From Haliotis asinina (taxonomy: Eukaryota; Mollusca; Gastropoda; Lepetellida; Haliotidae), in contig NC_090281.1 in assembly GCF_037392515.1 (NCBI RefSeq), positions 50,968,145 through 51,032,144 on the forward strand: 64,000 bases of DNA, written 5' to 3'. Under the pieces are notes generated by a model. That model was not told where the DNA came from. It ran no database searches and worked only from the letters and a program-made list of their open reading frames with translations. A program made the position numbers and the translations under genes. This document shows positions 38,768 through 64,000 of this stretch, piece after piece. Position 1 is the first letter of the stretch, and every line of letters starts with the position of its first letter.

Positions 38768-38836
38768 CGATCGATGCATAGGGTATGCCCCTATACGACT
38801 TATAGTAGTACAGGGGCATACCCTATGCATCGATCG
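38768..38836. repeat. Perfect 25-bp inverted repeat with 19-nt loop
   Basis: The arm at 38768-38792 (beginning CGATCGATGCATAGGGTATG) is repeated as its exact reverse complement at 38812-38836. No mismatch occurs over 25 bp, and the flanks do not pair. It could be a very young foldback element, a small-RNA hairpin, or an assembly or replication fold-back. Confidence 0.9.
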
Positions 38837-39765: not shown

Positions 39766-41910
39766 CCAAGACATTGCTCGTGCTTACTGACTGTTTCAAG
39801 GAAAGTATCAATAGGTGTGTAAGTAACATGGAGCATATAGAAATTTATAGTTTGTCACTTTGTTCATCTTAACTTAACATACATCACCATTCATACACAT
39901 ACATACTGCATAATACATTTATCATTACTCGATGCTAAACAAAGTTTCCCGTCATGTGATGGGATAAAATATCACAAATGTAACGCATTATATCTCACTA
40001 ATTCATTATATTGGCTGATACTTTGACCAATCGTATCGTGAGAACCTGTCACATAGGAAGAGCAAGGTGATGGGGCGTGGCCTAAACTTCTGAAGGGCAC
40101 ATTTCGTCACTCAGATTGGATACATTGATTTTATATTGTATTGTTTACCAGTGGATATGTTGTGTTTTGGTTGTATATTCTAACTATCATATAACAATTT
40201 GTGTATTGTCTGATATCGTATCGCTATCAAGGTTCACCAGACTGCACCCGTGTGTGCATATACAGTACAGAGAATGAAGCGTAAGTAGCACCATCAAGTG
40301 GGTTGTCCGACAAAATAACAACACATGTTTCTTTTACGCTTGTCCCGGGACAGTCCGTTCAATAAGGGAGTAGGGGCGTGGCTATGTATAAATTTTACCG
40401 GAGACTGTTGTGTCAAGACCAATAGTAGCGCTAAATAATCTTATTACTGTAGTCTGAATGATGATATGCAAGGGTATCAATACCATGACTAATATGCTAT
40501 CCTGCTTTTACGGATGATGGATCAACGGAATTAGTTGCTACATGTGATAATTACAGAGAAGTGTCAAGAAACTTTCAATAGCTCATAAAGTAAGGGATTA
40601 TGTAAGTGTGCCTTTCTTCACACATGTTTGGAATCTTTGTATGTAAGACATACTTAAACCAAATGATGTCCCACTCATATCATTGTGTGAGATTAAATTG
40701 TTCAAAACATCTATGTCAATGGCAGTAAAGACGAATTTACGCACATGCCTAATAATCTATGAAAGAAGCGTTTTCGCTGATACATTGCTAGTGTTTACTG
40801 AATATTTTAAGGAAAGTACTAATAAGCTAGTCTGTGACTTACTTATAACAGATTCACAGTTTGTCGCTTTGGTTCATCTAGATTTAATGCAGAAAATATA
40901 CGTTATCGCACGAACATACATGTATGCATATTGTATAATGCTGTTCCTTGCACATACATAAGACAAAGGGTCATGGGGTGGGCGTCATCAAAGTTGTCGA
41001 ATATGTCGTTTTGTATCTTAACTGTTCAATATACTCCCTGATTTGTTATCTATGACCAATCGTATCATGAGATACCTGTCACATTGGAAATGACAGGTGA
41101 TGGGGCGTGGGCTAAATTTCTGAAGGGTACGTTCGGTCACTAGACAGCTTTGATACAGATTGACTATTGGTTAGATCGTTGACCAATCGATATGCTGGAT
41201 TTCAGTTTTATCAACTCTAGCTATCATGAAAAGTTTGTGTATCGTGAACATATATAATCGTAAGGATGCCTGAAATGTACACGTAGAACTAACAAGCACT
41301 TTGACGAGTTTATTTTTCTTTGAAGCGCTCAAAGCGCTACAATCCGATTATTTTTACCCCGCATAACCCAATCCAACTATTGAGTAGAGATGGTATTTAT
41401 TTGCATATACTTTTTGCGCACACTACTTGTACATCAAACATAATGGTTCGCTGAACATTTCAATTTAATCTGCACATTGTTATGAATAAATACCATAATT
41501 CAAGAACATGTATTATAGAATTTAAAAAAGTAACACGATACTGATTTATACACTTGAAGTTGAATCTCCCCATATGTTTATGAAGATGGACATACTTATA
41601 TTTGTTTTGAAAGCAAACGATGTTCAGAAGATTGACAATGGGCGTAACTCCACAAAACAGGTTGTCCAATGATGTAACAACGCATTAGTTTGTTTTACAC
41701 TTGTCACGGGACAAAAGTTTACCTTGACATGCATTCGGCCAGAGGCTGTTATTTTGAGGTTGAAAGAGGTGTTTACATATCTCATTTAGTGTTGTCTGAT
41801 TGAATGATTATACGCATCAATTCCATAACTATTATCCTCCTTTTATTGACGATGGATCTGATACACGTGATCATTACACAGGATAAGATAATTACAGAGA
41901 TCAAATACAA
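39766..41910. repeat. Diverged direct duplication inside the TTAA element
   Basis: Three blocks recur in the same order about 1.0-1.36 kb apart. Landmarks include AAGGAAAGTA near 39800 and 40810. GACCAATCGTATC(G/A)TGAGA is followed by GATGGGGCGTGG near 40030-40080 and 41055-41105. GGTTGTCC and CTTGTC(C/A)CGGGACA occur near 40300-40350 and 41660-41715. The second copy carries about 330 extra bases at 41265-41650. Divergence is high and the sequence is non-coding. Confidence 0.7.
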
Positions 41911-42552
41911 AGGTTTCTTACACAATGCTTATGTAAATTGCATTGAAAAATCACATTTCAAACAAGCATGAAACAGCTTGAACAAAATACCCCAGTTACC
42001 TTTGTATGGTTTATGTGTACTATATATGTATATTCTGAGTAAATGCAAGAGTTATCACTTCATATTCGATTATGTATTATTGTCAACTTTAAAAATCAAT
42101 AGTCGCAAATGAATTAGGTCTAAATTAGTAACTTGGTTTATTTAAAATCAACATGAACATGAGTGTAATACAGTATTGCTATTTATGTCTACGATTCATT
42201 ATATGGACTATTACAACAAATGAATGAATGAATGATTTAATTTAGAAGAAGGTTTTGTAACCTTGTCACCATTAATTCAATCAATGTGCAAACATAGTAT
42301 TTTAGTGTTCAATCCCAATGACGAGTAACCAACACGTACCTCCTGTGACAACATCTCATAATCGCTTTTCTCACAGACATGTGTTCCTTTGCCTGTATAA
42401 TCCCCCGGCATTGCAAGCAATTGTTATCAAAACACATTAATAGTTCTTCTGATTAACACAGAAAGTAACCTCTCTCGTAAGAAAAGCTAATCTTTGATCA
42501 TTACTGCTAAACTGATTGAAATTATAGGTACAGTACAAATTTAAAATGTAAA

Positions 42553-42684
42553 ACCCCCAATACGCGGCTCTCGCTGAATGAGAGGTGCTTTTCGTAACCC
42601 CCAGTATGCGGCTCTCGCTGAATAAGAGGTGCTTTTTCTTACCCCCAATAAGCGACTCTCGCTGTGAGAAGTTAATTAATTTGC
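42553..42684. repeat. 44-bp tandem repeat, three copies
   Basis: ACCCCCA(A/G)TA followed by GCG(G/A)CTCTCGCTGA and AGAGGTGCTTTT starts at 42553, 42597 and 42641; the last copy is partly degenerate. The GCGGCTCTCG core reappears in the right terminus of the enclosing element at about 42694. Confidence 0.85.
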
Positions 42685-42898
42685 CGCATATACGCGGCTC
42701 TCGGCCTTAATGAGTTAATCAAACATGACTTTGGTGCATAATAGTAGCATATGCCTCCTCATCATCTAAAAACCTTTAGAAGTTTCACTAATTACCTGAA
42801 AGCCATAACACTGATCACATTTAAAAACAGGATAAATAAGTGGTGTTCTTTGTTCACAGCCCACAATGAACTAAGCAGAGGGACTACAAACCAGCATC

Positions 42899-45800
42899 AT
42901 GTCTACCTTGGAACAGGACTTACATAATGCAGTAAGGAGTGGTCATCTGCTACAGACTCAGTCTTTGCTCCTGAAAGGAGCCAAAATTGATGGCATCTAC
43001 TATGGATGGACACCCCTGCAGCAAGCAATTGATGCTGGTAGGTATGTCCAGCTGCTGGTATGTCCAGTCATCATGGTGATGTTATATAAACCATGTGGTG
43101 TTGGTCTGTAAAAAATCTAGAATGGACCAGTCAGTCTAGTAATCATCATATATATCATAAGCATCATTCTATACAGTGACGTATACAGTGACATGTTGAC
43201 CAAGTCAGCAAGCCTGACAAGCCAGTCCAGTTAGTCACCTCTTACAGCATTACAAATCTAATGTGGATATTAATAGACAATACATAAAAGGCTTTTAAAA
43301 CAGAAGATCTTCTAGGGCACAATTTGTGGTATATGGAGAGCATTTTGTAGAAGCTCTCAGCAATGTTACAAATTAAGCATGTAAAAGGGGGATGCTTGTC
43401 ATAATCCATGTGTAAATACTATTTTTATTTTCGGTTATTGAGTAGATAGTAGGAGATGTGAGAGGGGTGGTTATGACTAATCTTTCGTTTTAGCGACATG
43501 TCTTTTTCCTGTGGTGTGGTAGTATGTTCATATCTTTTGTCCCCAGGAAATGAAGCAGTGGCATTATTTCTAATAGAGGAAGGCTGTGACATCAATTACC
43601 ATGACAAGAACAATCTGTCACCATTTGAGAATGCTGTCAGAAAGAATCAGGCAAAAGTAAGATTCCTTTGATTGAATCATACAATCGTACTCATATTATT
43701 AAGGGATTTGTTTACAAAGCTCAACCTAAGCTGCATTTTTGTGTAAACATGTGTAATATATCCCCATAGCCCAATATCTTGAGAGTTGCTTGTATGAAGA
43801 CTGTGTCTAATGACTTTTAGGTGTGTGAATTATTGCTGAAGAAGGGCATTGATGGTAATCTCGCATTATCTGATGGAGAGGTACCACTCCACGTTGCTGT
43901 GGAGAAAGGAAGCACCAAGCTGGTCAGCGTCCTTATGAGTGAAGGTAATGTAAATACTCTCACATAGAAGGTGAAAACAAGAAACTGTTTATGGATAAAA
44001 AGTTCTTCTTTCTTTCTGAATCACCTAGTGAATGGACAAGAAGTAATTCTGAAATGTCGCGAAGGATAAATACTTTATCATCCATAAAATGCTTCATGTC
44101 ATGTTCTTCATATGTATGAAAGACTTGAGTTAAAATCTATTGTACAAGAGCCAGAATGGTAAAAGTGTCATATCTTTATCTCACAGATTTACCTGGGACT
44201 GTAAACTGTTTTTCAGTAACGTAGACTGATTTTTGTCTTTCAAGGCATTGACAAACACTAGGTATCTACACTGGCGTGTGTTTAAATTTCACAGAAATGC
44301 ACCACTATCATTGTACAGTATTACATGCCTACAAGACTAAAGCTGGGGATTTCAGTCGAAGTCACCCAATGACTCTCAGAACTGAAATCATACTCGACAA
44401 ATTGGGCCTTTGCTGTGTTCAGCTTGTGTAATGCTTCTTATCCTGATAACTTAAACGTCTTGGAGACAAACGTCATCTGTAAGTTTTGTAAGTACTTATT
44501 CATAAAATTTTCTCTTTCTAAGGGAAAGTTGACCTAAGCTGTAAAAATAAGCGTGGACAGTCACCACTGTATGTGGCATGCTCTGAGGGCCTGGCCAAGA
44601 TTGCCTCCATGTTGGTGACATCAGGAGCAGACGTCAACTTCCAGTGTGAGGATGATGGGCAGACGCCACTTATTGCTGCAGCAAGCAATGAACACCAAGA
44701 TGTTGTGAAGATTCTTTTAAAAGTAAAATTTCTAAAAATCAATGTTTCTTAATTTGATAAAGTTCCAAAATGCATAATATCAAATGGGTGATGAGTTTGG
44801 TTGTACACTGATTTTAGCAGATTTCCACCGTATCAACTGTTTAGCATGGGGTCAAGTCCACAGATTGTCTGAAAAGCCAAGTTTCTAATCTGGGTTTGTC
44901 AGATGAGGACAAGTTCTAACTTACACACTATCAAACCTTTAATTTACTAATAAGATATGGTGGTGTGTGGATGAGTGTGATTGTACACTGATTTAACAGA
45001 TATCCAATATTATCACTGAGTAGTAAGGACATCCTTACCTTGTCAGCTTGCTGATGGGGTTAGCCACTTTGCTCATGATCAGAAGGTCCTTGGTTTGAAT
45101 CCCAGCATGGAACTTGGACATTTAATGGCTGCTACTACAGGGGGCACCCAAAATGAGTTTCAGACATTGTGTCTGCGTGTGGAATAAAACTTGGCCTTTG
45201 CCATAAGAAGCCAACACTTCACCGATTAGGCTAATATTCCATCCCTATTGCATTGCTGTACGTGTTAGTAGTAGATACCTTGCTTGGAGTGTGTATGTGT
45301 GCATTTCATCAATCCTCCTTGCTTATTGATCAGTTGAAGCAACAGGACATCAGAGTGGTTCATTGTTGAGAGGAACAGGATATGATGTCATGCATTGTTT
45401 ATGATGTCATAAATTGTTTATATTACAAGAGACGTCCTTCAGTACCTGTGAAGGTCCTGGGTAGAATAGGCCTTCAGCCAGCCATGCTTGCCATAAAAGG
45501 TGACAAGGCTTGTTGTAAGAGACGACTAACAGGATTGGGTGGTCAGGCTGGCTGACTTGGTTGACACATGCCATCGGTTCCCAACTGCCCATATCAATGC
45601 TCTTGCTGTTGATGACTGGATTGTCTGGTCCAGACTCAATTATTTACAGACTGATGCCATATAGCTGGAATATTGCTGAGTGCAGCGTAAAACTCAACTC
45701 ACTCACTCACTTACTTCCTTCAGTGAAGAGTAGGGTTGATATTGTATTTGTATGTATTTCTTCAATGCCTAACTTAAGAATGTCAGTATTAACATATAGA

Positions 45801-46237
45801 ATAACCTACTCAAAGTTGTAATCTTCTGTTCCTCACAGTGAAGTAAGTCCAAAACCAAAGGTTGAGGATTTATGCCAATCGTTCACTTGGGACAGATAAT
45901 TCTGAGAAGTTTCTTTGTTTTTCTCTAATTACTGTATCTATCTAGCTGTGATATGACTGAAGAATTGTTCAAAATGGTGTTACACTCAACTCACCGAGTC
46001 TGAAAAAAGTGTCTCTGTTCTGTGCAGTACAATGCAGATGTGAACGTCCAGGATACAGATGGATGGACGGCACTGTGGCATGCTTACACCAACAGCAGCG
46101 AGGACATCATTGAGCTGTTGCTGAAGGCAGGAGCCAACAGAAACATCCCCAACAGTGATGGCCTCACCATCATGGAGGACGCCAGGGAGAACGAGGATGA
46201 TGAGATGTTGATCTTGTTCCAGAAGTATCTCACATGA
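42899..46237 (+). CDS. Ankyrin-repeat protein (five coding exons)
   Basis: Coding exons are 42899-43037, 43547-43656, 43821-43944, 44523-44722 and 46028-46237. All are GT-AG, phases join, and they total 783 nt for 260 residues. The protein is essentially only ankyrin repeats, about seven, of the form G(W/Q)TPL...A...G....V..LL..GAD(V/I)N. Clear examples are GWTPLQQAIDAGNEAVALFL, GQSPLYVACSEGLAKIASML, GQTPLIAAASNEHQDVVKIL and GWTALWHAYTNSSEDIIELL. The C-terminal repeat is degenerate and acidic (ENEDDEMLILFQKYL). There is no SOCS box, kinase, death or transmembrane segment, so it is a small scaffold or interaction protein with unknown partner. An acceptor (TTTGTTCACAG) at about 42859 suggests a 5' UTR intron, and a two-codon upstream frame (ATG AAC TAA) precedes the start. 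Introns 1 and 4 carry SINEs. Confidence 0.9.
43095..43255 (-). mobile_element. ACTC-tailed SINE, old reverse copy in intron 1 of the ankyrin gene
   Basis: GGTCTGTAAAAAATCTAGAA, GGACCAGTCAGTCTAGTAAT, GACATGTTGACCAAGTCAGC and TTAGTCACCTCTTACAG are the family landmarks in reverse order. Confidence 0.75.
45045..45200. mobile_element. tRNA-like SINE remnant(s) in intron 4 of the ankyrin gene
   Basis: GGTTAGCCACTTTGCTCATG and CCTTGGTTTGAATCCC look like A and B boxes in forward orientation. The following GGGGGCACCCAAAATGAG and TTTCAGACATTGTG match the tRNA-headed family read in reverse. This may be two adjoining remnants. Confidence 0.4.
45447..45712 (+). mobile_element. ACTC-tailed SINE, near full length, duplicated head, in intron 4 of the ankyrin gene
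   Basis: It runs from CCTGTGAAGGTCCTGGGTAG through the doubled CATGCTTGCCATAAAAGGTG / GGCTTGTTGTAAGAGACG segment to TAGCTGGAATATTGCTGAGT and (ACTC)n. It has the same arrangement as the copy at 37542-37810. Confidence 0.9.
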
Positions 46238-46611
46238 CAGTCCAGGTTTGCAGAGAATCATAATCATACAACACAATGAAAGTCATAACTTGTTTCTACT
46301 TAATACTGGAATGTGGAACACAGCATGTTTTTCACATTGGAGTTATATTTTTAGGATTTGGCTGTTTGGTAGTTTAGTTTAACACATGCTCAAGAATTGT
46401 CCCACGCATCGCTTTACATTTAACCAAGGGTTTATCATCCATTTATGTTATCATTATAATCTCATGGGATGATCAGCCATTAAAAACATTTGACACATAG
46501 CTTTGATACTAGTAGGGTAGGGAAGGGAAGTAAATTGAGTGTACACAGATACCATAAATGTTTTGTTACATCAAATGCATTGGTTTCAAACCTAACTTTG
46601 AATTTGCATAA

Positions 46612-46617
46612 AATAAA
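46612..46617 (+). promoter_or_regulatory. Polyadenylation signal of the ankyrin gene
   Basis: AATAAA about 375 nt after the stop codon; a second AATAAA follows near 46798. Confidence 0.5.
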
Positions 46618-47368
46618 CAAAATGTGTAAACATTACAACATATATTTTGAGTTGCCATGACATACTTAGACATGGAGTTACAACAAGTGGTCAGATCACT
46701 TCATGGAATGGTGCCCTAACCTTGGGAATCCTGTCTTGTTGTACACTTGTCTTCAGGCCCCATTCCATATAACTATCAGAGTGCTTTGACTGTCGTAAAT
46801 AAAGTGTTTGAATGAATATCGCCATAGCACTTTAGGAAAGGGAGCCTAAAGCTCAACCAAGTGGTGTTCATCAGGTAAAGTTTGTATTTTGTAATGCATT
46901 TCCTTGTTCCATTTCCAATGATCGTCATGCTTTTATTTTATTGGAAGATGGTTTTCAATTTGTATTTACTTGTGTTGTTATCATTCTTCACTAAGTATTA
47001 ATCTGACACTGTAGTGTGTTCTGACTGCACTAATAACTGTATAATTCTGATACAGTTGAATATCAAGGCTTCATATATTTGGTGCTTGTTTCATCTCATT
47101 CAATACTGGATTGCTTTTTCCCATGTCATTCATGCAAAAACAAGTCAGATGTATTGGGCATACTTGTACCCGACCATGGCTATAGACTCACACTTTTATT
47201 GTATGTGTTTAAAAGTCCATAACATGCTCAACTGACTACTGCAGTGTCCAGTTCAGTATGTTTCAACATTCATAATACATACAATTCGTTTCTAATCTAT
47301 TACATTTTGCATCACAACAAAGAGGATAATGTTTTCTCAGGAAACAAATGTAAAGATAGTGAAGTCCA

Positions 47369-47442
47369 GACTCGATTATTTACAGATCACCAGCATATAG
47401 CTGGAATATTGCTGAGTGCGGCGTAAAACTAAACTCACTCAC
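47369..47442 (+). mobile_element. Severely 5'-truncated ACTC-tailed SINE
   Basis: Only the last 70 or so bases remain: GTCCAGACTCGATTATTTAC to GCGGCGTAAAACTAAACTCA plus two further ACTC units. TCCAGAC occurs at the 5' junction and again right after the tail, consistent with a short target duplication that overlaps the element sequence (microhomology at the truncation). Confidence 0.85.
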
Positions 47443-48727
47443 TCCAGACAGTGAAACATGTTTGTAATGTACTGAACGTTCCGATAATGAACACAAACAC
47501 ATGCTAGAAATTGTCAAAATATACTGATATAGTGTCTCTGAATACCAGCAGTTTCTAAGAATATGTTTTAGTAGACTTTTAAACGGTGTTGGTATGTTCT
47601 TGTTGATCTTCACAGAATAGTCACTTATCATTTGAGGAAATTTGAGTACCTGAGTACTTAAATACATATTTTTTGTGACTTTTTCATGATGAATAAGCTT
47701 TTGAAAATGCTTGGTTTTGACAAATCTGTGTACCAGAGAAATCCACTGTCAAAAGACAGCAAGTTTTAAAAGATTTTTGCAGATTTCTCTCAAGATTTGA
47801 CTGTTCAATATCATTGTTCATTTATTCAAGAGTGCCTATCTCAGATTTTCTCTTGTATGTGTAACATTATTTGGTTAAGCACCATTCCTGCAGTAAGTGC
47901 CTTATGCCAATTGTCAGGTTATTGTGGCAGCTGTACAGGAGCTTTGCATTGCTTGCTGCCTTGTGCTAGTACTTAACTCTAACCAAAGTTGTGAAAGAGG
48001 TCAATATTTAAACCCTTTGGATCAAATCAGTTATTTTCAGGAGATAAAACCAAATCTCACTGAGAATTTGGATCCTAATTAGCAGAATTGACATGTTTTG
48101 AATATTGTAACTACGAATCCAAACTTTGTAAATTAGAATTGCACATATCATTAATTTGATATGATGTCTGACTATTAATGAGAAAGAAGAACTCGTCCAT
48201 TAATATTAATGTATGTCCGTCTATCAGGCTGTCTTTATTAGAGTTGATTATTGTGATGTTATTTGATACCTTTATAATACCAATTATCGTCTTGTAAATT
48301 ATTGTGGGAAAGAGAAATATAGGAATAGTGTGCAAGAATATATTTATGGTATTTTAAAAATATTTATATGTATTATTACTTTTGTAGTGGGGTAAAGGTG
48401 TGTGTGTGTTTTAGAGGGGTTTGAGAATGGGGCAGCAGCCTCCCTACTGGTTTACTTAACATTCCTTCATCCATATGTTGCAAGTAATGTTACATTCCGT
48501 CCTTGTGGATGTTTTTTTACTGGTAAGAAATGTTTAATTTCTGTGTTTTCCAGAGTTATAAAGAATAAAGTAAAATACATCTGTGACTTGCTTTGTCAGT
48601 TGTTTTATTGCTTTCATATAAGGTACAAATTAAGGAATTCACCTGTACAAAATAATTATTTCATTGTAATGAAGCGTCATAATACTGCTCAGGTTACAGG
48701 AAGGATGCTAACCTATTGTGCTAGCTG

Positions 48728-48871
48728 GAATGTTTAGTTGTTATACCATTGGAATCACATGTAGAATGTTTAGTTGTTATGCCAGCTTGATTACCTGTAG
48801 AATGTGTAGGTGATATGCCCTCCAGAAGTCTTTCAAATGTTTTGCTGTTATACAGCTAGATTACCCGTAGA
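48728..48871. repeat. 36-bp tandem repeat, four copies, next to the satellite
   Basis: Units starting at 48728, 48764, 48800 and 48836 share GAATGT(T/G)TAG(T/G)TG(T/A)TAT followed by a less conserved half and (A/C)CCTGTA. The period is exactly 36 bp and the last unit abuts the A-rich satellite. Confidence 0.8.
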
Positions 48872-51050
48872 CCAACAAACAAAACACCAACAAACCATAA
48901 TAACACAAGTAACAAAACATGAAACTGCGAAAACCACAACTTATCAAAAGAAAGATAACAAAAGTAAGGACGTAATTAGATACAAGACCGAAAAGACCAA
49001 CAACATAAATAAAATAACAAACAAAAACAAAATCAAACTGAGACAATACCCCCTTCATGCAAGAAAGCACTACCGTAAACACACGTGCACGCACGCGCGT
49101 AACTGCCCAGAACATTCAATCGAACAAAAGGAACAAACACCATTCTCTCAATCAGTGATACATCATTAAAACCATAACACGAATGTGGAATAGACAATAC
49201 ATGTGTGAATAAACTGAATGAGGCAAGCAGAATACACACAAAGATACCTAAACAAAAAAAACAACAAAAAAACAAAACAAACCAGCACAAACAGATCACA
49301 AAACAAACAGCAGACATGTAATAGAAACAAGAAAATAAAGAGAATATATCCATCAACCAGCATTAAAATCTTCTATCACACATCAAAGAACAATTGAAAC
49401 AAAAAAAAATATCAGTCCCTGAAATAACATCAGCAAAACAGGAACGAACTAATCTGAGCTATAAAAGAACAAATGAAATAAATCAATTATGGCAAGAACC
49501 ATCCAAAAACAAGCAAACAAAGAACAAAACAAACACGTGTAAACACCGAAATGAACCCATAAACAAGCACGCGATGCCGAAACCCAAGAACAGTCCACGC
49601 AAATAACAACACAAGTAAACATCAAACTGAGAAAACATCAAATTAACCAGAGAACGCTAACACAAGCAATCACCCCAAAAGATCCCAACAGACGGAAAAG
49701 GAATGGACAACAGAACAAGAAAACTAAATAAGGGAGGCTAAGAGAAGCAAATAGGGAGGCACAATCAAATACTAACATGTGAAACAACAAACCTCAAAGT
49801 TAAGAAATCAACACGAAAGCAAGACACAGTCGACAAACTAGTAAACAAAAATAGAACAGACCAAACACACGTCTAAAAAACGACAGGGACCCTTCAAAAA
49901 GCATAAAAATAACAAAAACAACATTATACCAAGTGAATAAATACAAACACATGTGGCCAAGCTTCAAAATAAGGACACCTCAACTTCACACAAATGCAAC
50001 ACATGCAGTCACCAAAAGAAAAGAAGAAAATGAAAAACAATGTGGCTCATAAACTAAGTTTACCAAGCGACAAAACTGCAATGAAGAACCACACGCATCG
50101 AAAGAAAACACAACCAAGCCAATATTTCAACATAAACATGAAATAGAAACAAAGGAAATAAGGAAAAGAAAGCCATCAACCAGGTAAATAAATATCGAAA
50201 TTATCAAACAATACAATAAAGAAAAGAAAACCATCAACCAGGTAAATAAATATTCAAAATATCAAACACAGTATCGAATATCAAAACACAAAAGGAACAA
50301 ACATCCAACTATCAATCACTTAAACAACATCATCAAAACCTGAAGCACAAAAGATGAATATACTACTCAATGAGTGAACTAAAACAGTCAAATCGCATAA
50401 CACCAATGAACAAACACACTAAGAAAATAAAAAATGCCAACATTTGAGCAAAAAACAAAACAGAAAAAACAAGAATCAAACTAAATCAAAGGAAGAAAAA
50501 AATAACTATCAACAAGCTAAATGAATATCCAAGAATTCAAACAAAGCATCAAACATCAGAGAACAAGAGTAAGAAACAACCAACTACCAATCATTGAAAC
50601 AACATCATTAAAACCCAAAAACAAAAAATAGAATTCACAACATAATCAATACACAAAAAGAAGCAAGCAAAAATATACCAATGAGAAAACATACAAACAA
50701 AACGAAACCCCAAATTGCCAACAGTAAAAAACAAAAACAATAAAACAAAACATAAATAAATAAAGATAAAATCAAAACAAAAAAAAGTAAGAAAAGAGAA
50801 GTATCCGTCAGTTAAATGAACATGCAAATATGCAAATGAAGTATCAAACATCAAAGAACAAAAGGAACAAACATCAAACTATCAATCTCTAAAACATCAC
50901 GAGAAAAGGAAACACAAAACAGGATTGGACAACACAAACGGTAAACTAAATATGGCAAGTAAAATAACAACAAAAAAACCAAACACAAATAGAATAAAAC
51001 ACAAACAACCAACTACCAACAAACTAAATGAATATATAAGAATTCAAACA
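48872..51050. repeat. Diverged edge of the satellite array
   Basis: The sequence turns abruptly A-rich with few T and G. Degenerate versions of the array motifs (ATCAAACATCAAAG-like, CTATCAATCACT-like, ACCATCAACCAG, AACAACATCATCAAAACC) recur at roughly 260-280-bp spacing from about 49346, becoming regular toward 51 kb. This is the expected decay at an array margin. Confidence 0.75.
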
Positions 51051-53110
51051 AAGTATCAAACATCAAAGAAGAAAAGGAACAAACAACAAAATATCAATTA
51101 CTGATATAAAATCATCAAAACGCAAAACACAAACAGTAAATACACAGCGAAATGAGTAAACGCAACGAGGGCAAGCACAATAGCACCAATAAACAAACAC
51201 ACAAACAGAATAAACCACAATCAAACCAACATAAAAACAATAAAGAAAAACTAAGCAGAAAAATAAAATCAAAACTAAGGAAAGAAAGAAAATATAACCA
51301 TCAACAAGCCAAATGAACATCCCAGTATTCCAACGAAGTATCAAACATCAAAGAACAAAACGACCAACCAACAAACTATCAATCACTAAAAGAGTAAGAC
51401 ACACATTCAGAACAAAAGAAAGTGAGGAAAACAACACCATGCAAACAGAATAAAACACAACCATCCGAAAACATAAACTCTAAAAGCCAAGCAGCAAACA
51501 TAACATCAAAACAAAGGGACAAAAACAAAGGCATCTATCAACCAACTGAGAGAACATCCAACAATACAAACAAAGCATCAAACATCAAAGAAAAAATTCG
51601 AAAAACATCAAACTGTCAATCACTGAAACAACATCAACAAAACCCGAACACACAAAAGACGAATGGACAACACAATGAGTAAACAAAATGAGGCAAACAA
51701 AATAACACCAAGACACAAAAACAGAAACAGAATAAACGACAATCAAGCCAACATTCAAACGCTAAAAAATAAAATAAAGCAGCAAATATAAAATCCAAAT
51801 CAAAAGAAAGTAAGAAAACATAACTACACGAAAGTTAAATCAACATGCAAATATGCAAACGAAGTATCAAACATCAAAGAACAAAAGGAACAAACATCAA
51901 ACTATCAATCTCTAAAACATCACGAAAAAAGGAAACACAAAACAGGATTGGACAACACAAACGGTAAACTAAATATGGCAAATAAAATAACAACATAAAA
52001 AACCCGCACAAACAAGTAGAACAAAAAAGAAACAACGAACTACAACAAACTAAATGAATTTATAAGAATTCAAACAAAGTATCAAACATCAAAGAAGAAA
52101 AGGAACAAACAACAAAATATCAATTACTGATATAAAATCATCAACACGCAAAACACAAACACTAAATACACAGTGAAATGAGTAAACTCAACGAGGGCAA
52201 GCACAAAAGCACCAATAAACAAACACACAAACAGAATAAGCCACAATCAAGCCAACATAAAAAAAATGAAGAAAAACGAAGCAGAAAAATAAAATCAAAA
52301 CAAAGGAAAAAAAGAAAATATAACCATCAACAAGCCAAATGAACATCCAAGTATTCCAACGAAGCATCAAACATCAAAGAACAAAACGACCAACCAACAA
52401 ACTATCAATCACTAAAAGAGTAAGACACACATTCAGAACAAAAGAAAGAGAAGAAAACAACACCATGCAAACAGAATAAAACACAACCACCCCAAATTCT
52501 AAACACTAAAAGCAAAGCAGCAAACATAACATCAAACCAAAGGGACAAAAACAAAGGTATCTATCAACCAACTGAGAGAACATCCAACAATACAAACAAA
52601 GCATCAAACATCAAAGAAAAAACTCGAAAAACATCAAACTGTCAATCACTGAAACAACATCAACAAAACCCGAACACACAAAAGACGAATGGACAACACA
52701 ATGAGTAAACAAAATGAGGCAAACAAAATAACACCAAGACACAAAAACGGAAACAGAATAAACGGCAATCAAGCCAACATTCAAACGCTAGAAAATAAAA
52801 TAAAACAGGACATATAAAATCAAAATAAAAGACAGTAAGAAAACATAACTACATGAACGTTAAATGAACATGCAAATATGCAAAAGGAAGTATCAAATAT
52901 CAAAGAACAAAAGGAACAAACATCAAACTATCAATCTCTAAAACATCACGAAAACAGGAAACACAAAACAGGATTGGACAACACAAACGGTAAACTAAAT
53001 ATGGCAAGTAAAATAACAACAACAACAAAAACCAAACACAAATAGAATAAAACACAAACAACCAACTACCAACAAACTAAATGAATATATAAGAATTCAA
53101 ACAAAGTATC
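51051..53110. repeat. Satellite zone 1: two 1026-bp tetrameric monomers
   Basis: The landmark ATCAAACATCAAAG occurs near 51055, 51340, 51577, 51866 and 52081, i.e. steps of about 285, 237, 289 and 215 bp that then repeat, summing to about 1026. Each step is a diverged copy of one ancestral unit (shared order: ATCAAACATCAAAGAA, CTATCAAT or CTGTCAAT, then ACTGAAA/ACTAAAA). Confidence 0.85.
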
Positions 53111-56100
53111 AAACATCAAAGAAGAAAAGGAACAAACAACAAAATATCAATTACTGAAATAAAATCATCAAAACGCGAAACACAAACAGTAAATAGACAG
53201 CGAAATGAGTAAACTCAACGAGGGAAGCACAATAGCACCAATAAACAAACACACAAACAGAATAAGCCACAATCAAGCCAACATAAAAACAATAAAGAAA
53301 AACGAAGCAGAAAAATAAAATCAAAACTAAGGAAAGAAAGAAAATATAACCATCAACAAGCCAAATGAACATCCCAGTATTCCAACGAAGTATCAAACAT
53401 CAAAGAACAAAACGACCAACCAACAAACTATCAATCACTAAAAGAGTAAGACACACATTCAGAACAAAAGAAAGTGAGGAAAACAACACCATGCAAACAG
53501 AATAAAACACAACCATCCGAAAACATAAACTCTAAAAGCCAAGCAGCAAACATAACATCAAACCAAAGGGACAAAAACAAAGGTATCTATCAACCAACTG
53601 AGAGAACATCCAACAATACAAACAAAGCATCAAACATCAAAGAAAAAACTTGAAAAACATCAAACTGTCAATCACTGAAACAACATCAACAAAACCCGAA
53701 CACACAAAAGACGAATGGACAACACAATGAGTAAACAAAATGAGGCAAACAAAATAACACCAAGACACAAAAACAGAAACAGAATAAACGGCAATCAAGC
53801 CAACATTCAAACGCTAAAAAATAAAATAAAGCAACAAATATAAAATCCAAATAAAAGAAAGTAAGAAAACATAACTACACGAAAGTTAAATGAACATGCA
53901 AATATGCAAACGAAGTATCAAACATCAAAGAACAAAAGGAACAAACATCAAACTATCAATCTCTAAAACATCACGAAAAAGGGAAACACAAAACAGGATT
54001 GGACAACACAAACGGTAAACTAAATATGGCAAGTAAAATAACAACAACAAAACCAAACACAAATAGAATAAAACAAACAAACAACTACCAACACACTAAA
54101 TGAATACATAAGAATTCAAACAAAGTATCAAACATCAAAGAAGAAAAGGAACAAACAACAAACTATCAACCAACTGAGAGAACATCCAACAATACAAACA
54201 AAGGATCAAACATCAAAGAAAACACTCGAAAAACATCAAACTGTCAATCACTGAAACAACATCAACAAAACCCGAACACACAAAAGACGAATGGACAACA
54301 CAATGAGTAAACAAAATGAGGCAAACAAAATAACACCAAGACACAAAAACAGAAACAGAATCAACGACAATCAAGCCAACATTCAAACGCTAAAAAATAA
54401 AATAAAGCAGCAAATATAAAATCCAAATCAAAAGAAAGTAAGAAAACATAACTACACGAAAGTTAAATCAACATGCAAATATGCAAACGAAGTATCAAAC
54501 ATCAAAGAACAAAAGGAACAAACATCAAACTATCAATCTCTAAAACATCACGAAAAAGGGAAACACAAAACAGGATTGGACAACACAAACGGTAAACTAA
54601 ATATGGCAAGTAAAATAACAACAACAACAAAAACCAAACACAAATAGAATAAAACACAAACAACCAACTACCAACAAACTAAATGAATATATAAGAATTC
54701 AAACAAAGTATCAAACATCAAAGAAGAAAAGGAACAAACAACAAAATATCAATTACTGAAATAAAATCATCAAAACGCGAAACACAAACAGTAAATAGAC
54801 AGCGAAATGAGTAAACTCAACGAGGGAAGCACAATAGCACCAATAAACAAACACACAAACAGAATAAGCCACAATCAAGCCAACATAAAAACAATAAAGA
54901 AAAACGAAGCAGAAAAATAAAATCAAAACTAAGGAAAGAAAGAAAATATAACCATCAACAAGCCAAATGAACATCCCAGTATTCCAACGAAGTATCAAAC
55001 ATCAAAGAACAAAACGACCAACCAACAAACTATCAATCACTAAAAGAGTAAGACACACATTCAGAACAAAAGAAAGTGAGGAAAACAACACCATGCAAAC
55101 AGAATAAAACACAACCATCCGAAAACATAAACTCTAAAAGCCAAGCAGCAAACATAACATCAAACCAAAGGGACAAAAACAAAGGTATCTATCAACCAAC
55201 TGAGAGAACATCCAACAATACAAACAAAGCATCAAACATCAAAGAAAAAACTTGAAAAACATCAAACTGTCAATCACTGAAACAACATCAACAAAACCCG
55301 AACACACAAAAGACGAATGGACAACACAATGAGTAAACAAAATGAGGCAAACAAAATAACACCAAGACACAAAAACAGAAACAGAATCAACGGCAATCAA
55401 GCCAACATTCAAACGCTAAAAAATAAAATAAAGCAACAAATATAAAATCCAAATAAAAGAAAGTAAGAAAACATAACTACACGAAAGTTAAATGAACATG
55501 CAAATATGCAAACGAAGTATCAAACATCAAAGAACAAAAGGAACAAACATCAAACTATCAATCTCTAAAACATCACGAAAAAGGGAAACACAAAACAGGA
55601 TTGGACAACACAAACGGTAAACTAAATATGGCAAGTAAAATAACAACAACAAAACCAAACACAAATAGAATAAAACAAACAAACAACTACCAACACACTA
55701 AATGAATACATAAGAATTCAAACAAAGTATCAAACATCAAAGAAGAAAAGGAACAAACAACAAACTATCAACCAACTGAGAGAACATCCAACAATACAAA
55801 CAAAGGATCAAACATCAAAGAAAACACTCGAAAAACATCAAACTGTCAATCACTGAAACAACATCAACAAAACCCGAACACACAAAAGACGAATGGACAA
55901 CACAATGAGTAAACAAAATGAGGCAAACAAAATAACACCAAGACACAAAAACAGAAACAGAATCAACGACAATCAAGCCAACATTCAAACGCTAAAAAAT
56001 AAAATAAAGCAGCAAATATAAAATCCAAATCAAAAGAAAGTAAGAAAACATAACTACACGAAAGTTAAATCAACATGCAAATATGCAAACGAAGTATCAA

Positions 56101-57890
56101 ACATCAAAGAACAAAAGGAACAAACATCAAACTATCAATCTCTAAAACATCACGAAAAAGGGAAACACAAAACAGGATTGGACAACACAAACGGTAAACT
56201 AAATATGGCAAGTAAAATAACAAAAAAAACAAAAACAAACACAAATAGAATAAAACACAACCAACCAACTACCAACAAACTAAATGAATATATAAGAATT
56301 CAAACAAAGTATCAAACATCAAAGAAGAAAAGGAACAAACAACAAACTATCAATTACTGAAATAAAATCATCAAAACGCGAAACACAAACAGTAAATACA
56401 CAGCGAAATGAGTAAACGCAACGAGGGCAAGCACAATAGCACCAATAAACAAACACACAAACAGAATAAGCCACAATCAAGCCAACATAAAAACAATAAA
56501 AAAACGAAGCAGAAAAATAAAATCAAAACAAAGGAAAGAAAGAAAATATAACCATCAACAAGCCAAATGAACATCCAAGTATTCCAACGAAGTATGAAAC
56601 ATCAAAGAACAAAACGACCAACCAACAAACTATCAATCACTAAAAGAGTAAGACACACATTCAGAACAAAAGAAAGAGAAGAAAACAACACCATGCAAAC
56701 AGAATAAAACACAACCACCCCAAATTCTAAACACTAAAAGCCAAGCAGCAAACATAACATCAAACCAAAGGGACAAAAACAAAGGTATCTATCAACCAAC
56801 TGAGAGAACATCCAACAATACAAACAAAGCATCAAACATCAAAGACAAAACTCGAAAAACATCAAACTGTCAATCACGGAAACAACATCAACAAAACCCG
56901 AACACACAAAAGAGGAACGGACAACAAAATGAGGCAAACAAAATAACACCAAGACACAAAAACGGAAACAGAATAAACGGCAATCAAGCCAGCATTCAAA
57001 CGCTAGAAAATAAAATAAAACAGTAAATATAAAATCAAAACAAAAGAAAGTAAGAAAACATAACTACACGAAAGTTAAATGAACATGCAAATATGCAAAC
57101 GAAGTATCAAACATCAAAGAACAAAAGGAACAAACATCAAACTATCAATCCCTAAAACATCACGAGAAAAGGAAACACAAAACAGGATTGGACAACACAA
57201 ACGGTAAACTAAATATGGCAAGTAAAATAACAACAACAAAACCAAACACAAATAGAATAAAACAAACAACCAACTACCAACACACTAAATGAATACATAA
57301 GAATTCAAACAAAGTATCAAACATCAAAGAAGAAAAGGAACAAACAACAAACTATCAACCAACTGAGAGAACATCCAACAATACAAACAAAGGATCAAAC
57401 ATCAAAGAAAACACTCGAAAAACATCAAACTGTCAATCACTGAAACAACATCAACAAAACCCGAACACACAAAAGACGAATGGACAACACAATGAGTAAA
57501 CAAAATGAGGCAAACAAAATAACACCAAGACACAAAAGCAGAAACAGAATCAACGACAATCAAGCCAACATTCAAACGCTAAAAAATAAAATAAAGCAGC
57601 AAATATAAAATCCAAATCAAAAGAAAGTAAGAAAACATAACTACACGAAAGTTAAATCAACATGCAAATATGCAAACGAAGTATCAAACATCAAAGAACA
57701 AAAGGAACAAACATCAAACTATCAATCTCTAAAACATCACGAAAAAGGGAAACACAAAACAGGATTGGACAACACAAACGGTAAACTAAATATGGCAAGT
57801 AAAATAACAAAAAAACAAAACCAAACACAAATAGAATAAAACACAAACAACCAACTACCAACAAACTAAATGAATATATAAGAATTCAAA
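53111..57890. repeat. Satellite zone 2: three composite units of about 1.6 kb
   Basis: Each unit is one full 1026-bp tetramer plus a shortened one of about 576 bp. The first two units are 1602 bp apart and almost identical by eye; the third is about 15 bp shorter. The short monomer is marked by the junction ACTATCAACCAACTGAGAGA at about 54162, 55764 and 57351. Confidence 0.88.
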
Positions 57891-60800
57891 CAAAGTATCA
57901 AACATCAAAGAAGAAAAGGAACAAACAACAAAATATCAATTACTGAAATAAAATCATCAAAACGCGAAACACAAACAGTAAATACACAGCGAAATGAGTA
58001 AACTCAACGAGGGAAGCACAATAGCACCAATAAACAAACACACAAACAGAATAAGCCACAATCAAGCCAACATAAAAACAATAAAGAAAAACGAAGCAGA
58101 AAAATAAAATCAAAACAAAGGAAAGAAAGAAAATATAACCATCAACAAGCCAAATGAACATCCCAGTATTCCAACGAAGTATCAAACATCAAAGAACAAA
58201 ACGACCAACCAACAAACTATCAATCACTAAAAGAGAAAGAAACACATTGAGAACAAAAGAAAGAGAAGAAAACAACACCATGCAAACAGAATAAAACACA
58301 ACCACCCCAAATTCTAAACACTAAAAGCCAAGCAGCAAACATAACATCAAACCAAAGGGACAAAAACAAAGGTATCTATCAACCAACTGAGAGAACATCC
58401 AACAATACAAACAAAGCATCAAAGATCAAAGAAAACACTCGAAAAACATCAAACTGTCAGTCACTGAAACAACATCAACAAAACCCGAACACACAAAAGA
58501 GGAACGGACAACACAATGAGTAAACAAAATGAGGCAAACAAAAAACCACCAAGACACAAAAACGGAAACAGAATAAACGGCAATCAAGCCAGCATTGAAA
58601 TGCTAGAAAATAAAATAAAACAGTAAATATAAAATCAAAACAAAAGAAAGTAAGAAAACATAACTACACGAAAGTTAAATGAACATGCAAATATGCAAAA
58701 GGAAGTATCAAACATCAAAGAACAAAAGGAACAAACATCAAACTATCAATCTCTAAAACATCACGAGAAAAGGAAACACAAAACAGGATTGGACAACACA
58801 AACGGTAAACTAAATATGGCAAGTAAAATAACAACAACAACAAAAAACAAACACAAATAGAATAAAACACAAACAACCAACTACCAACAAACTAAATGAA
58901 TATATAAGAATTCAAACAAAGTATCAAACATCAAAGAAGAAAAGGAACAAACAACAAACTATCAATTACTGAAATAAAATCATCAAAACGCGAAACACAA
59001 ACAGTAAATACACAGTGAAATGAGTAAACTCAACAAGGGAAGCACAATAGCACCAATAAACAAACACACAAACAGAATAAGCCACAATCAAGCCAACATA
59101 AAAACAATAAAAAAACGAAGCAGAAAAATAAAATCAAAACAAAGGAAAGAAAGAAAATATAACCATCAACAAGCCAAATGAACATCCCAGTATTCCAACG
59201 AAGTATCAAACATCAAAGAACAAAACGACCAACCAACAAACTATCAATCACTAAAAGAGTAAGACACACATTCAGAACAAAAGAAAGAGAAGAAAACAAC
59301 ACCATGCAAACAGAATAAAACACAACCACCCCAAATTCTAAACACTAAAAGCCAAGCAGCAAACATAACATCAAACCAAAGGGACAAAAACAAAGGTATC
59401 TATCAACCAACTGAGAGAACATCCAACAATACAAACAAAGCATCAAACATCAAAGAAAACACTCGAAAAACATCAAACTGTCAGTCACTGAAACAACATC
59501 AACAAAACCCGAACACACAAAAGAGGAACGGACAACACAATGAGTAAACAAAATGAGGCAAACAAAATAACACCAAGACACAAAAACGGAAACAGAATAA
59601 ACGGCAATCAAGCCAGCATTGAAATGCTAGAAAATAAAATAAAACAGTAAATATAAAATCAAAACAAAAGAAAGTAAGAAAACATAACTACACGAAAGTT
59701 AAATGAATATGCAAATATGCAAAAGGAAGTATCAAACATCAAAGAACAAAAGGAACAAACATCAAACTATCAATCTCTAAAACATCACGAAAACAGGAAA
59801 CACAAAACAGGATTGGACAACACAAACGGTAAACTAAATATGGCAAGTAAAATAACAACAACAACAAAAAACAAACACAAATAGAATAAAACACAAACAA
59901 CCAACTACCAACAAACTAAATGAATATATAAGAATTCAAACAAAGTATCAAACATCAAAGAAGAAAAGGAACAAACAACAAACTATCAATTACTGAAATA
60001 AAATCATCAAAACGCGAAACACAAACAGTAAATACACAGCGAAATGAGTAAACTCAACGAGGGAAGCACAATAGCACCAATAAACAAACACACAAACAGA
60101 ATAAGCCACAATCAAGCCAACATAAAAACAATAAAGAAAAACGAAGCAGAAAAATAAAATCAAAACAAAGGAAAGAAAGAAAATATAACCATCAACAAGC
60201 CAAATGAACATCCCAGTATTCCAACGAAGTATCAAACATCAAAGAACAAAACGACCAACCAACAAACTATCAATCACTAAAAGAGAAAGAAACACATTGA
60301 GAACAAAAGAAAGAGAAGAAAACAACACCATGCAAACAGAATAAAACACAACCACCCCAAATTCTAAACACTAAAAGCCAAGCAGCAAACATAACATCAA
60401 ACCAAAGGGACAAAAACAAAGGTATCTATCAACCAACTGAGAGAACATCCAACAATACAAACAAAGCATCAAAGATCAAAGAAAACACTCGAAAAACATC
60501 AAACTGTCAGTCACTGAAACAACATCAACAAAACCCGAACACACAAAAGAGGAACGGACAACACAATGAGTAAACAAAATGAGGCAAACAAAAAACCACC
60601 AAGACACAAAAACGGAAACAGAATAAACGGCAATCAAGCCAGCATTGAAACGCTAGAAAATAAAATAAAACAGTAAATATAAAATCAAAACAAAAGAAAG
60701 TAAGAAAACATAACTACACGAAAGTTAAATGAACATGCAAATATGCAAAAGGAAGTATCAAACATCAAAGAACAAAAGGAACAAACATCAAACTATCAAT

Positions 60801-63800
60801 CTCTAAAACATCACGAGAAAAGGAAACACAAAACAGGATTGGACAACACAAACGGTAAACTAAATATGGCAAGTAAAATAACAACAACAACAAAAAACAA
60901 ACACAAATAGAATAAAACACAAACAACCAACTACCAACAAACTAAATGAATATATAAGAATTCAAACAAAGTATCAAACATCAAAGAAGAAAAGGAACAA
61001 ACAACAAACTATCAATTACTGAAATAAAATCATCAAAACGCGAAACACAAACAGTAAATACACAGTGAAATGAGTAAACTCAACAAGGGAAGCACAATAG
61101 CACCAATAAACAAACACACAAACAGAATAAGCCACAATCAAGCCAACATAAAAACAATAAAAAAACGAAGCAGAAAAATAAAATCAAAACAAAGGAAAGA
61201 AAGAAAATATAACCATCAACAAGCCAAATGAACATCCCAGTATTCCAACGAAGTATCAAACATCAAAGAACAAAACGACCAACCAACAAACTATCAATCA
61301 CTAAAAGAGTAAGACACACATTCAGAACAAAAGAAAGAGAAGAAAACAACACCATGCAAACAGAATAAAACACAACCACCCCAAATTCTAAACACTAAAA
61401 GCCAAGCAGCAAACATAACATCAAACCAAAGGGACAAAAACAAAGGTATCTATCAACCAACTGAGAGAACATCCAACAATACAAACAAAGCATCAAACAT
61501 CAAAGAAAACACTCGAAAAACATCAAACTGTCAGTCACTGAAACAACATCAACAAAACCCGAACACACAAAAGAGGAACGGACAACACAATGAGTAAACA
61601 AAATGAGGCAAACAAAATAACACCAAGACACAAAAACGGAAACAGAATAAACGGCAATCAAGCCAGCATTGAAATGCTAGAAAATAAAATAAAACAGTAA
61701 ATATAAAATCAAAACAAAAGAAAGTAAGAAAACATAACTACACGAAAGTTAAATGAACATGCAAATATGCAAAAGGAAGTATCAAACATCAAAGAACAAA
61801 AGGAACAAACATCAAACTATCAATCTCTAAAACATCACGAAAACAGGAAACACAAAACAGGATTGGACAACACAAACGGTAAACTAAATATGGCAAGTAA
61901 AATAACAACAACAACAAAAAACAAACACAAATAGAATAAAACACAAACAACCAACTACCAACAAACTAAATGAATATATAAGAATTCAAACAAAGTATCA
62001 AACATCAAAGAAGAAAAGGAACAAACAACAAACTATCAATTACTGAAATAAAATCATCAAAACGCGAAACACAAACAGTAAATACACAGCGAAATGAGTA
62101 AACTCAACGAGGGAAGCACAATAGCACCAATAAACAAACACACAAACAGAATAAGCCACAATCAAGCCAACATAAAAACAATAAAGAAAAACGAAGCAGA
62201 AAAATAAAATCAAAACAAAGGAAAGAAAGAAAATATAACCATCAACAAGCCAAATGAACATCCCAGTATTCCAACGAAGTATCAAACATCAAAGAACAAA
62301 ACGACCAACCAACAAACTATCAATCACTAAAAGAGAAAGAAACACATTGAGAACAAAAGAAAGAGAAGAAAACAACACCATGCAAACAGAATAAAACACA
62401 ACCACCCCAAATTCTAAACACTAAAAGCCAAGCAGCAAACATAACATCAAACCAAAGGGACAAAAACAAAGGTATCTATCAACCAACTGAGAGAACATCC
62501 AACAATACAAACAAAGCATCAAAGATCAAAGAAAACACTCGAAAAACATCAAACTGTCAGTCACTGAAACAACATCAACAAAACCCGAACACACAAAAGA
62601 GGAACGGACAACACAATGAGTAAACAAAATGAGGCAAACAAAAAACCACCAAGACACAAAAACGGAAACAGAATAAACGGCAATCAAGCCAGCATTGAAA
62701 CGCTAGAAAATAAAATAAAACAGTAAATATAAAATCAAAACAAAAGAAAGTAAGAAAACATAACTACACGAAAGTTAAATGAACATGCAAATATGCAAAA
62801 GGAAGTATCAAACATCAAAGAACAAAAGGAACAAACATCAAACTATCAATCTCTAAAACATCACGAGAAAAGGAAACACAAAACAGGATTGGACAACACA
62901 AACGGTAAACTAAATATGGCAAGTAAAATAACAACAACAACAAAAAACAAACACAAATAGAATAAAACACAAACAACCAACTACCAACAAACTAAATGAA
63001 TATATAAGAATTCAAACAAAGTATCAAACATCAAAGAAGAAAAGGAACAAACAACAAACTATCAATTACTGAAATAAAATCATCAAAACGCGAAACACAA
63101 ACAGTAAATACACAGTGAAATGAGTAAACTCAACAAGGGAAGCACAATAGCACCAATAAACAAACACACAAACAGAATAAGCCACAATCAAGCCAACATA
63201 AAAACAATAAAAAAACGAAGCAGAAAAATAAAATCAAAACAAAGGAAAGAAAGAAAATATAACCATCAACAAGCCAAATGAACATCCCAGTATTCCAACG
63301 AAGTATCAAACATCAAAGAACAAAACGACCAACCAACAAACTATCAATCACTAAAAGAGTAAGACACACATTCAGAACAAAAGAAAGAGAAGAAAACAAC
63401 ACCATGCAAACAGAATAAAACACAACCACCCCAAATTCTAAACACTAAAAGCCAAGCAGCAAACATAACATCAAACCAAAGGGACAAAAACAAAGGTATC
63501 TATCAACCAACTGAGAGAACATCCAACAATACAAACAAAGCATCAAACATCAAAGAAAACACTCGAAAAACATCAAACTGTCAGTCACTGAAACAACATC
63601 AACAAAACCCGAACACACAAAAGAGGAACGGACAACACAATGAGTAAACAAAATGAGGCAAACAAAATAACACCAAGACACAAAAACGGAAACAGAATAA
63701 ACGGCAATCAAGCCAGCATTGAAATGCTAGAAAATAAAATAAAACAGTAAATATAAAATCAAAACAAAAGAAAGTAAGAAAACATAACTACACGAAAGTT

Positions 63801-64000
63801 AAATGAATATGCAAATATGCAAAAGGAAGTATCAAACATCAAAGAACAAAAGGAACAAACATCAAACTATCAATCTCTAAAACATCACGAGAAAAGGAAA
63901 CACAAAACAGGATTGGACAACACAAACGGTAAACTAAATATGGCAAGTAAAATAACAACAACAACAAAAAACAAACACAAATAGAATAAAACACAAACAA
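57891..64000. repeat. Satellite zone 3: 2050-bp dimeric higher-order repeat, nearly three copies
   Basis: Two monomer types alternate. One has CTCAACGAGGGAAGCAC and AAGAGAAAGAAACACATTGA; the other has CTCAACAAGGGAAGCAC and AAGAGTAAGACACACATTCA. Equivalent points fall at 57940, 59990 and 62040, exactly 2050 bp apart. Copies differ by only a few visible bases. The array continues past the window end. Confidence 0.92.
62261..62279 (-). other. CENP-B-box-like motif (one example of about nine)
   Basis: The minus strand reads CTTCGTTGGAATACTGGGA. The first 11 bases equal the CENP-B box YTTCGTTGGAARCGGGA; the second half has two extra bases and a CTGGGA end in place of CGGGA. It occurs once per full tetramer, for example at 51320, 53372, 58161, 59185, 60211 and 62261. 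Confidence 0.5.

What the first reader, a model, noticed from the sequence alone, without database searches (positions are those of the whole stretch)
48872..64000. Three-level higher-order satellite with zones of different organisation
Direct reading gives a roughly 256-bp ancestral unit (subunits of 215-290 bp), a 1026-bp tetramer, then zone-specific higher orders: single tetramers (51.05-53.1 kb), 1.6-kb composites (53.1-57.9 kb) and a 2050-bp dimer (57.9 kb to the end). Similarity between copies rises from the diverged left edge toward the right. This is the pattern expected of an expanding array whose centre lies to the right of the window, and the family may be undescribed.
Basis: seen in the sequence. 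Interest (0 to 1): 0.75.

Follow-up and report, generated by a model that had tools for sequence, protein, structure and literature searches.

The report
One-locus tandem repeat in abalone-like genome
A 20-kilobase stretch of nested tandem repeats, found at one place (in two near-identical copies) in what looks like an abalone genome, changes length by mispaired recombination as satellite DNA is known to do; it is a tidy example of a known process, with an unusually lopsided base composition between its two strands.

Summary
From 48,872 the window is a head-to-tail array of four diverged subunits (237+289+216+284 = 1026 bp): single tetramers, then composites of 1602, 1602 and 1587 bp, then 2050-bp dimers. 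The array ends at 68,556, only 4.6 kb past the window, against a 2.4-kb G/A-rich block. Its most homogeneous part (57.7-64.9 kb) lies almost wholly inside the window, and identity falls again to the right. In the 1.14-Gb genome, 97 of 100 listed anchor matches (106 in all) lie in this array and in a second copy 3.35 Mb away on the same contig (98.5-100% identical where sampled; retained haplotype or recent duplication). The second copy is shorter by exactly 9801 bp: one 1602-bp composite plus eight tetramers. One of its tetramers is a chimera of a core and a right-edge tetramer, so an unequal exchange is caught directly. The most striking feature was not in the finding: the + strand is about 57% A and 12% T for 20 kb, with sharp edges. 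It is not coding and no CENP-B-like box was found. Best reading: an interstitial, locus-specific higher-order tandem array evolving by unequal recombination; a new member of a known kind. Interest 0.3.

The parts
48728..48871 (.). Left border: T-rich 36-bp direct repeats (2.6 copies, 48728-48819) and the sequence up to the array
   Evidence: TRF row 48728-48819; sequence
48872..50240 (+). Degenerate left edge: A-rich, T-poor, barely recognisable monomers
   Evidence: composition change point 48,863; profile hits 49122-49361, 49374-49444, 50050-50208; shuffle control
50241..52560 (+). Diverged monomers, then single tetramers (C-D-A-B, about 1026 bp)
   Evidence: anchors and gaps; tetramers W50841 and W51864
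52561..57351 (+). Three composites of 1602, 1602 and 1587 bp; each holds a tetramer plus about 576 bp and a 78-bp truncated monomer at the junction
   Evidence: lag-1602 alignment 52561-57358 vs 54163-58965 at 97.5%; 78-bp gaps after anchors 54125, 55727 and 57314
57352..63828 (+). Homogeneous core: from 57,681 tetramers a-b-a-b-a-b, period 2050 bp, same-type copies 99.2-100% alike
63829..64000 (+). Start of a further b-type tetramer; the array goes on past the window to about 68,556, then a G/A-rich block to about 70,973
   Evidence: right flank fetched

Best explanation
An interstitial, locus-specific non-coding tandem array with higher-order structure. A roughly 250-bp unit was tandemly duplicated and diverged (shown: four types, 65-75% alike), a four-unit block was then amplified as a 1026-bp unit (shown), and later exchanges made composites and dimers (structure shown; order inferred). 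Copy number changes by unequal homologous recombination between in-register tetramers: the second copy differs by exactly one 1602-bp composite and eight tetramers, and one of its tetramers is a chimera of a b-type tetramer and the right-edge tetramer W66906 (shown; that the left parent is W58705, 8.2 kb away, is inferred from the length, since other b copies are 99.9-100% identical to it). Exchange keeps the middle homogeneous while both edges, which rarely pair, drift (pattern shown, cause inferred). No cell function is needed to explain it. The strong strand asymmetry is probably inherited from an A-rich, T-poor founder sequence and copied by amplification (inferred).
For: Unit structure and identities. 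One orientation: 0 minus-strand profile hits in 122 kb, and 18,398 of 19,685 array bases covered (coverage is partly by construction, as the profile was built from these monomers). Length difference 19,052-9,251 = 9,801, which splits by the anchors into 1,602 left of the last 78-bp junction and 8,199 right of it. Chimera F19069 (columns where the four parents tried differ): W58705 matches 19 of 19 columns from 54 to 486 and 14 of 40 from 557 on; W66906 matches 1 of 19 and 39 of 40. F19069 pairs with W66906 in the tree at 99/98. Both edges are less like the consensus (96.3-97.5% left, 97.2% at W66906) than the core (98.4-99.3%). Confined to one locus plus its copy: 97 of 100 listed anchor matches, totals 101 forward and 5 reverse against 2 and 1 for the reversed control.
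Against: Replication slippage or break-induced replication would also leave unit-sized differences and chimeras, so crossing over is not separated from these. One column (921) of F19069 goes against the simple chimera, and F18044 is a less simple mosaic with two columns that match none of three parents tried. The order of events is inferred. The founder explanation of the asymmetry is untested; a test for strand-biased substitution gave p = 0.33 with singletons (n = 54), 0.075 (n = 63) and 0.016 (n = 84) with looser calls whose polarity is less safe, so an ongoing bias is not excluded. The gradient is not smooth: W51864 is 94.8-95.8% like every other window tetramer, and W52890 and W54492, near the left edge, are 99.6% alike.
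Confidence: 0.85

Rival explanations
1. Centromeric or pericentromeric satellite of this one chromosome: the array marks or borders the centromere of C2.
For: The array lies at 51.02 of 101.98 Mb, the middle of contig C2; higher-order structure is typical of some centromeres (recalled).
Against: Only 20 kb; of 100 listed anchor matches 3 lie outside the two arrays (one on C1, two elsewhere on C2), near the control level; no CENP-B-box-like site on either strand of 48,872-71,005 (box recalled); ordinary flanks with an F-box open frame 15 kb away and dispersed repeats.
Confidence: 0.06
2. Functional strand-asymmetric element: a transcribed repeat-RNA locus (hsr-omega-like, recalled) or an R-loop or replication-barrier element made of the A/C-rich array plus the G/A-rich block.
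For: AT skew 0.54-0.70 in all 39 bins of 500 bp from 49,001 on, with change points at 48,863, 68,557 and 70,973; skew persists in the degenerate left edge; 4 G-quadruplex-like starts in the G-rich block.
Against: No transcription data; no Rfam match (window only); GC skew flips between the two blocks, so one strand-biased process does not explain both; G/A-rich blocks elsewhere have no A/C-rich partner in the 10-30 kb read around them (6 of 6 places), though the one on C15 has a T/C-rich 23-bp array beside it.
Confidence: 0.06
3. Assembly artefact: composites, dimers or the second copy come from collapse or mis-joining.
For: The second copy, 3.35 Mb off on the same contig, is 100.000% identical in two of four 3-kb samples, which looks like a retained haplotype.
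Against: Both copies show the same zone order and the same odd 78- and 275-bp units; the difference is a whole number of units. Read depth could not be examined.
Confidence: 0.05
4. Tandem array carried by a mobile element, as in Helitron/Helentron-borne molluscan repeats.
For: Known in molluscs (PMC7492417, listing and abstract start; PMC12692304, passages).
Against: No dispersed copies found; no element ends recognised by eye, and no element library was searched.
Confidence: 0.04

Closest known systems
Alpha-satellite-type higher-order repeats (primates)
   Same: Diverged monomers built into a multi-monomer unit; homogeneous core and diverged edges; length differences in whole units (pattern recalled).
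   Different: One 20-kb interstitial locus, four-monomer unit of about 256-bp monomers, no CENP-B-like box found, extreme strand asymmetry.
Abalone SalI satellite family (Hernandez-Ibarra 2008) and the Muchmore 1998 abalone satellite
   Same: Satellite DNA of the same likely genus.
   Different: Both seen only as citations in PMC5874043; sequences not seen, so identity is not excluded by comparison. A SalI site occurs here once, in the degenerate left edge, and in no tetramer.
Low-copy euchromatic tandem arrays ('seeds') of satellitome studies
   Same: Low-copy non-coding arrays amid ordinary sequence (PMC12692304, passages).
   Different: This one has several levels of organisation within 20 kb and lies at one locus and its copy.
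Rapana venosa 1460-bp satellite
   Same: Gastropod AT-rich satellite with a long unit thought to come from a shorter ancestral one (PMC11121367, passage).
   Different: About 5% of that genome by the same passage; here about 30 kb in two copies.

Membership tests
Satellite DNA in the extended sense (any non-coding tandem array; PMC12692304, passage) | Head-to-tail copies in one orientation | tested here: met
   0 minus-strand profile hits in 122 kb; 18,398 of 19,685 bases covered, partly by construction
Satellite DNA in the extended sense (any non-coding tandem array; PMC12692304, passage) | Non-coding | tested here: met
   Stops in every frame (279, 271, 342 on +; 286, 261, 326 on -); longest open run 124 codons; open run of a tetramer reached by 141 of 500 shuffles
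Satellite DNA in the classical sense (not filed under it) | Abundant in the genome | tested here: not met
   The assembly holds the anchor word at one locus and its copy (97 of 100 listed of 106 matches); raw reads not examined
Satellite DNA in the classical sense (not filed under it) | Heterochromatic | not testable with these tools
   No chromatin data
Higher-order repeat | Multi-monomer unit far more alike between copies than its monomers are to each other | tested here: met
   Same-type 95.6-98.3% vs between-type 65-75%
Centromeric satellite | Bound by CENP-A or located at the centromere | not testable with these tools
   No ChIP or FISH; one contig only
Abalone SalI satellite family | SalI site in the unit (inferred from its name) | tested here: not met
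   One GTCGAC at 49,829, none in tetramers; family sequence not seen
Transposon-borne tandem repeat | Array present within dispersed element copies | tested here: not met
   no dispersed copies found; both are capped or word-based searches

The most novel reading that the evidence does not exclude
The whole 22-kb block (A/C-rich higher-order array plus adjoining G/A-rich array), T-poor on one strand from end to end with sharp borders, is a single strand-asymmetric element whose composition is still being kept up by a strand-biased process (transcription, R-loops or one-way replication), not just inherited from a founder.
Probability: 0.06. Interest if true: 0.6.

Novelty: new member of a known kind. 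Interest (0 to 1): 0.3.

Why it matters
A complete, short higher-order array with both edges and two near-identical copies lets unequal exchange be read at single-tetramer resolution, which is hard in megabase arrays. An EcoRI site once per core tetramer makes a length-polymorphism test simple. A 20-kb strand asymmetry of this strength seems unusual for a long-unit array (recalled; no survey was made) and its upkeep is an open question.

Tried and rejected
Coding repeat (low-complexity protein): rejected, stops in all frames. Known RNA family: no Rfam match in the window. CENP-B box: none. Immunoglobulin-switch-like AGCT motifs: one in 18.3 kb. Phased A-tracts near 10 bp: no clear 10-bp peak; weak correlations at 7, 13-15 and 30 bp. 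Strand-biased substitution as upkeep of the asymmetry: inconclusive; an equilibrium composition computed (A 0.575) looks like the observed one but is not used, because wrong polarity alone would produce it. G/A-rich plus A/C-rich blocks as a recurring pair: not seen at the six other G/A-rich places read. The left-edge search of the genome never got an answer.

Reading the BLAST row far 1-19329 vs 38019-57358 as a full match of the composite zone was dropped: anchor order shows that the second copy has two, not three, 78-bp junctions. Dropped before counts: four inter-anchor gaps (one of 898 bp, three of 78 bp) of 74; all stretches that are not complete C-D-A-B tetramers by length (15 kept in the window copy, right flank included, 6 in the second copy).

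Full report
Where it is. The window is C2:50,968,145-51,032,144 of a 1.14-Gb, 159-contig genome. Six matches to the egg-lysin family PF01303, all over the cut-off, cluster at C14:26.67-26.92 Mb; 0 of 14 control genomes match. From recall that family is known from abalone and near relatives, so the source is probably an abalone (Haliotis); the species was not determined.

The array. TRF here stops at periods of 500 bp, but shared 14-mers starting in 46-64 kb peak at lags 2050, 1026, 1024, 4100, 3074, 1602 and 1587. An 18-bp anchor marks the monomers: 56 matches in the window, all + and all from 49,373 on, against a shuffle mean of 0.40. Spacings run 237-289-216-284 = 1026 bp. Of 74 inter-anchor stretches, 70 were aligned (one of 898 bp and three of 78 bp left out); sorted by length, 67 fall in four types (A 15, B 17, C 19, D 16), 95.6-98.3% alike within and 65-75% between types; three others (275, 275 and 295 bp) are variants.

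Zones. Single tetramers start at 50,841 and 51,864. Three composites follow (52,561-57,352; 1602, 1602 and 1587 bp), each with a 78-bp truncated unit (order x-B-C-D-A-B-C; 78+289+216+284+237+288+210 = 1602) that marks an out-of-register exchange. From 57,681 tetramers alternate a-b-a-b-a-b; a against b is 98.3-98.9%, same-type copies 99.2-100%. At 62,805 and 63,829 two b tetramers follow each other, then an a-like tetramer, then two diverged ones at 65,879 and 66,906.

Beyond the window. Sixty kb of contig from 2 kb inside the window end were fetched (overlap with the window checked). The array ends at 68,556 in a part-monomer, then a G/A-rich block runs to about 70,973, then ordinary sequence. 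The array spans about 19.7 kb with its middle at about 58.7 kb. Identity to the consensus of the 15 tetramers is 96.3-97.5% for the four leftmost, 98.4-99.3% from 56,094 to 63,829, and 98.9, 98.1 and 97.2% for the last three; the consensus leans to the core. The claim of a centre to the right of the window is therefore not supported.

Strand asymmetry. The + strand of 51-64 kb is A 0.567, C 0.206, G 0.111, T 0.117, against A 0.312, T 0.313 in 1-48 kb. AT skew is 0.54-0.70 in every 500-bp bin from 49,001 to 68,500. The next block is G 0.43-0.48, A 0.33-0.37, T 0.12-0.18 on the same strand, GC skew +0.75 to +0.86, so T stays low but GC skew changes sign. G/A-rich blocks occur elsewhere: a 37-bp repeat with about 139 copies on C15, and others on C2, C6 (two), C12 and C13. 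None of these six places had an A/C-rich array beside it in the 10-30 kb read; the C15 one is followed by a T/C-rich 23-bp array. A seventh place, C12:10.544 Mb, hit weakly by the array, is a short simple A/C-rich run.

Second copy. C2:54.37 Mb holds the same array with its flanks. Left flank: 10,814 matches, 11 mismatches, 30 gap columns; right flank 99.57% over 3,020 bp, and 98.5% over a 9,489-bp alignment that takes in array end, G/A-rich block and flank. Four 3-kb samples: one matches over its last 1,618 bases at 98.5% (8 mismatches and a gap in 1,376) and 99.2%, the rest of it belonging to about 6.3 kb absent from the window; the other three are 99.83%, 100% and 100%. The matches run across about 120 kb, sampled, not read through. 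The mosaic of identical and slightly diverged pieces fits two haplotypes kept by the assembler better than an old duplication, but read depth is needed; I put retained haplotype at about two in three.

A caught exchange. From first to last anchor the window copy spans 19,052 bp and the other 9,251 bp. The difference, 9,801, is 1,602 (one composite) to the left of the last 78-bp junction and 8,199 (eight tetramers) to the right (anchors). The last full tetramer of the second copy, F19069, follows W58705 at 19 of 19 informative columns from 54 to 486 (W66906: 1 of 19) and W66906 at 39 of 40 from 557 on (W58705: 14 of 40); column 921 is the exception (four parents tried, gaps counted as letters). 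W58705 and W66906 lie 8,201 bp apart. A single in-register exchange within about 70 columns explains the loss; other b tetramers are nearly identical to W58705, so the left parent is named from the length. Because W66906 has its own left half, the longer state is more likely ancestral, so this event reads as a contraction. F18044 is a less simple mosaic at columns 129-254, with two columns matching none of three parents tried. In the tree of 21 tetramers the window and second-copy rows interleave (6 changes of label), as expected if the array was already built before the copies parted.

Only here. The 18-bp anchor with up to one mismatch has 101 forward and 5 reverse matches genome-wide, reversed control 2 and 1. 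Of 100 listed, 97 lie in the two C2 arrays (all 73 exact ones among them) and 3 elsewhere; six were not listed. A 1.1-kb core search gave 10 matches in the second array and one weak simple-sequence match on C12, and did not list the window itself, which shows that this search is a lower bound. Unassembled or collapsed copies cannot be excluded.

Function. Nothing found requires one. Not coding, no Rfam family in the window, no CENP-B-like site. The mid-contig position is noted, but a 20-kb single locus beside ordinary sequence is weak ground for a centromere. The best-supported working is turnover by unequal homologous recombination, as in the standard model of satellites (Smith 1976, recalled).

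Literature. Six paper searches showed no report of this array in the listed titles and abstract starts; the listings were capped. Two abalone satellite papers (Muchmore 1998; Hernandez-Ibarra 2008) were seen only as citations. PMC5874043, PMC11121367 and PMC12692304 were read as passages only. Two further searches were for background; none of their papers was opened. 'Undescribed' is probable, not shown.

Noticed in passing
window 21676-24639 (+): Open frame of 987 codons with reverse transcriptase and zf-RVT domains: a LINE-like element.
   Followed up: partly
window 32496-33977 (-): Open frame of 493 codons with an F-box domain, the nearest likely gene to the array on the left; the right flank was not scanned for genes.
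   Followed up: partly
C2:54,313,069-54,319,381 (second copy), opposite window about 1,281: About 6.3 kb absent from the window: an insertion or deletion between the two copies.
   Followed up: no
L014:6799-7344 vs extended window 74658-75021: A 182-bp tandem repeat has three copies in the second copy and, judged from BLAST rows, two in the window's right flank.
   Followed up: no
L030:1382-6530 and 7549-8402 (C15:19.04 Mb): A 5-kb G/A-rich array of a 37-bp unit, about 139 copies, GC skew about 0.8, followed by a T/C-rich 23-bp array of 37 copies: strand-skewed blocks recur in this genome.
   Followed up: partly
L009 about 9578-9785: A dispersed repeat of about 210 bp, SINE-like from recall, with 85-87% matches on many contigs (40 of 5,799 first-look candidates scored).
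   Followed up: no
window 1925-1985, 18188-18281, 38247-38330: Perfect microsatellites: TTTG, 15 copies; AGT, 31; ATTT, 21.
   Followed up: no
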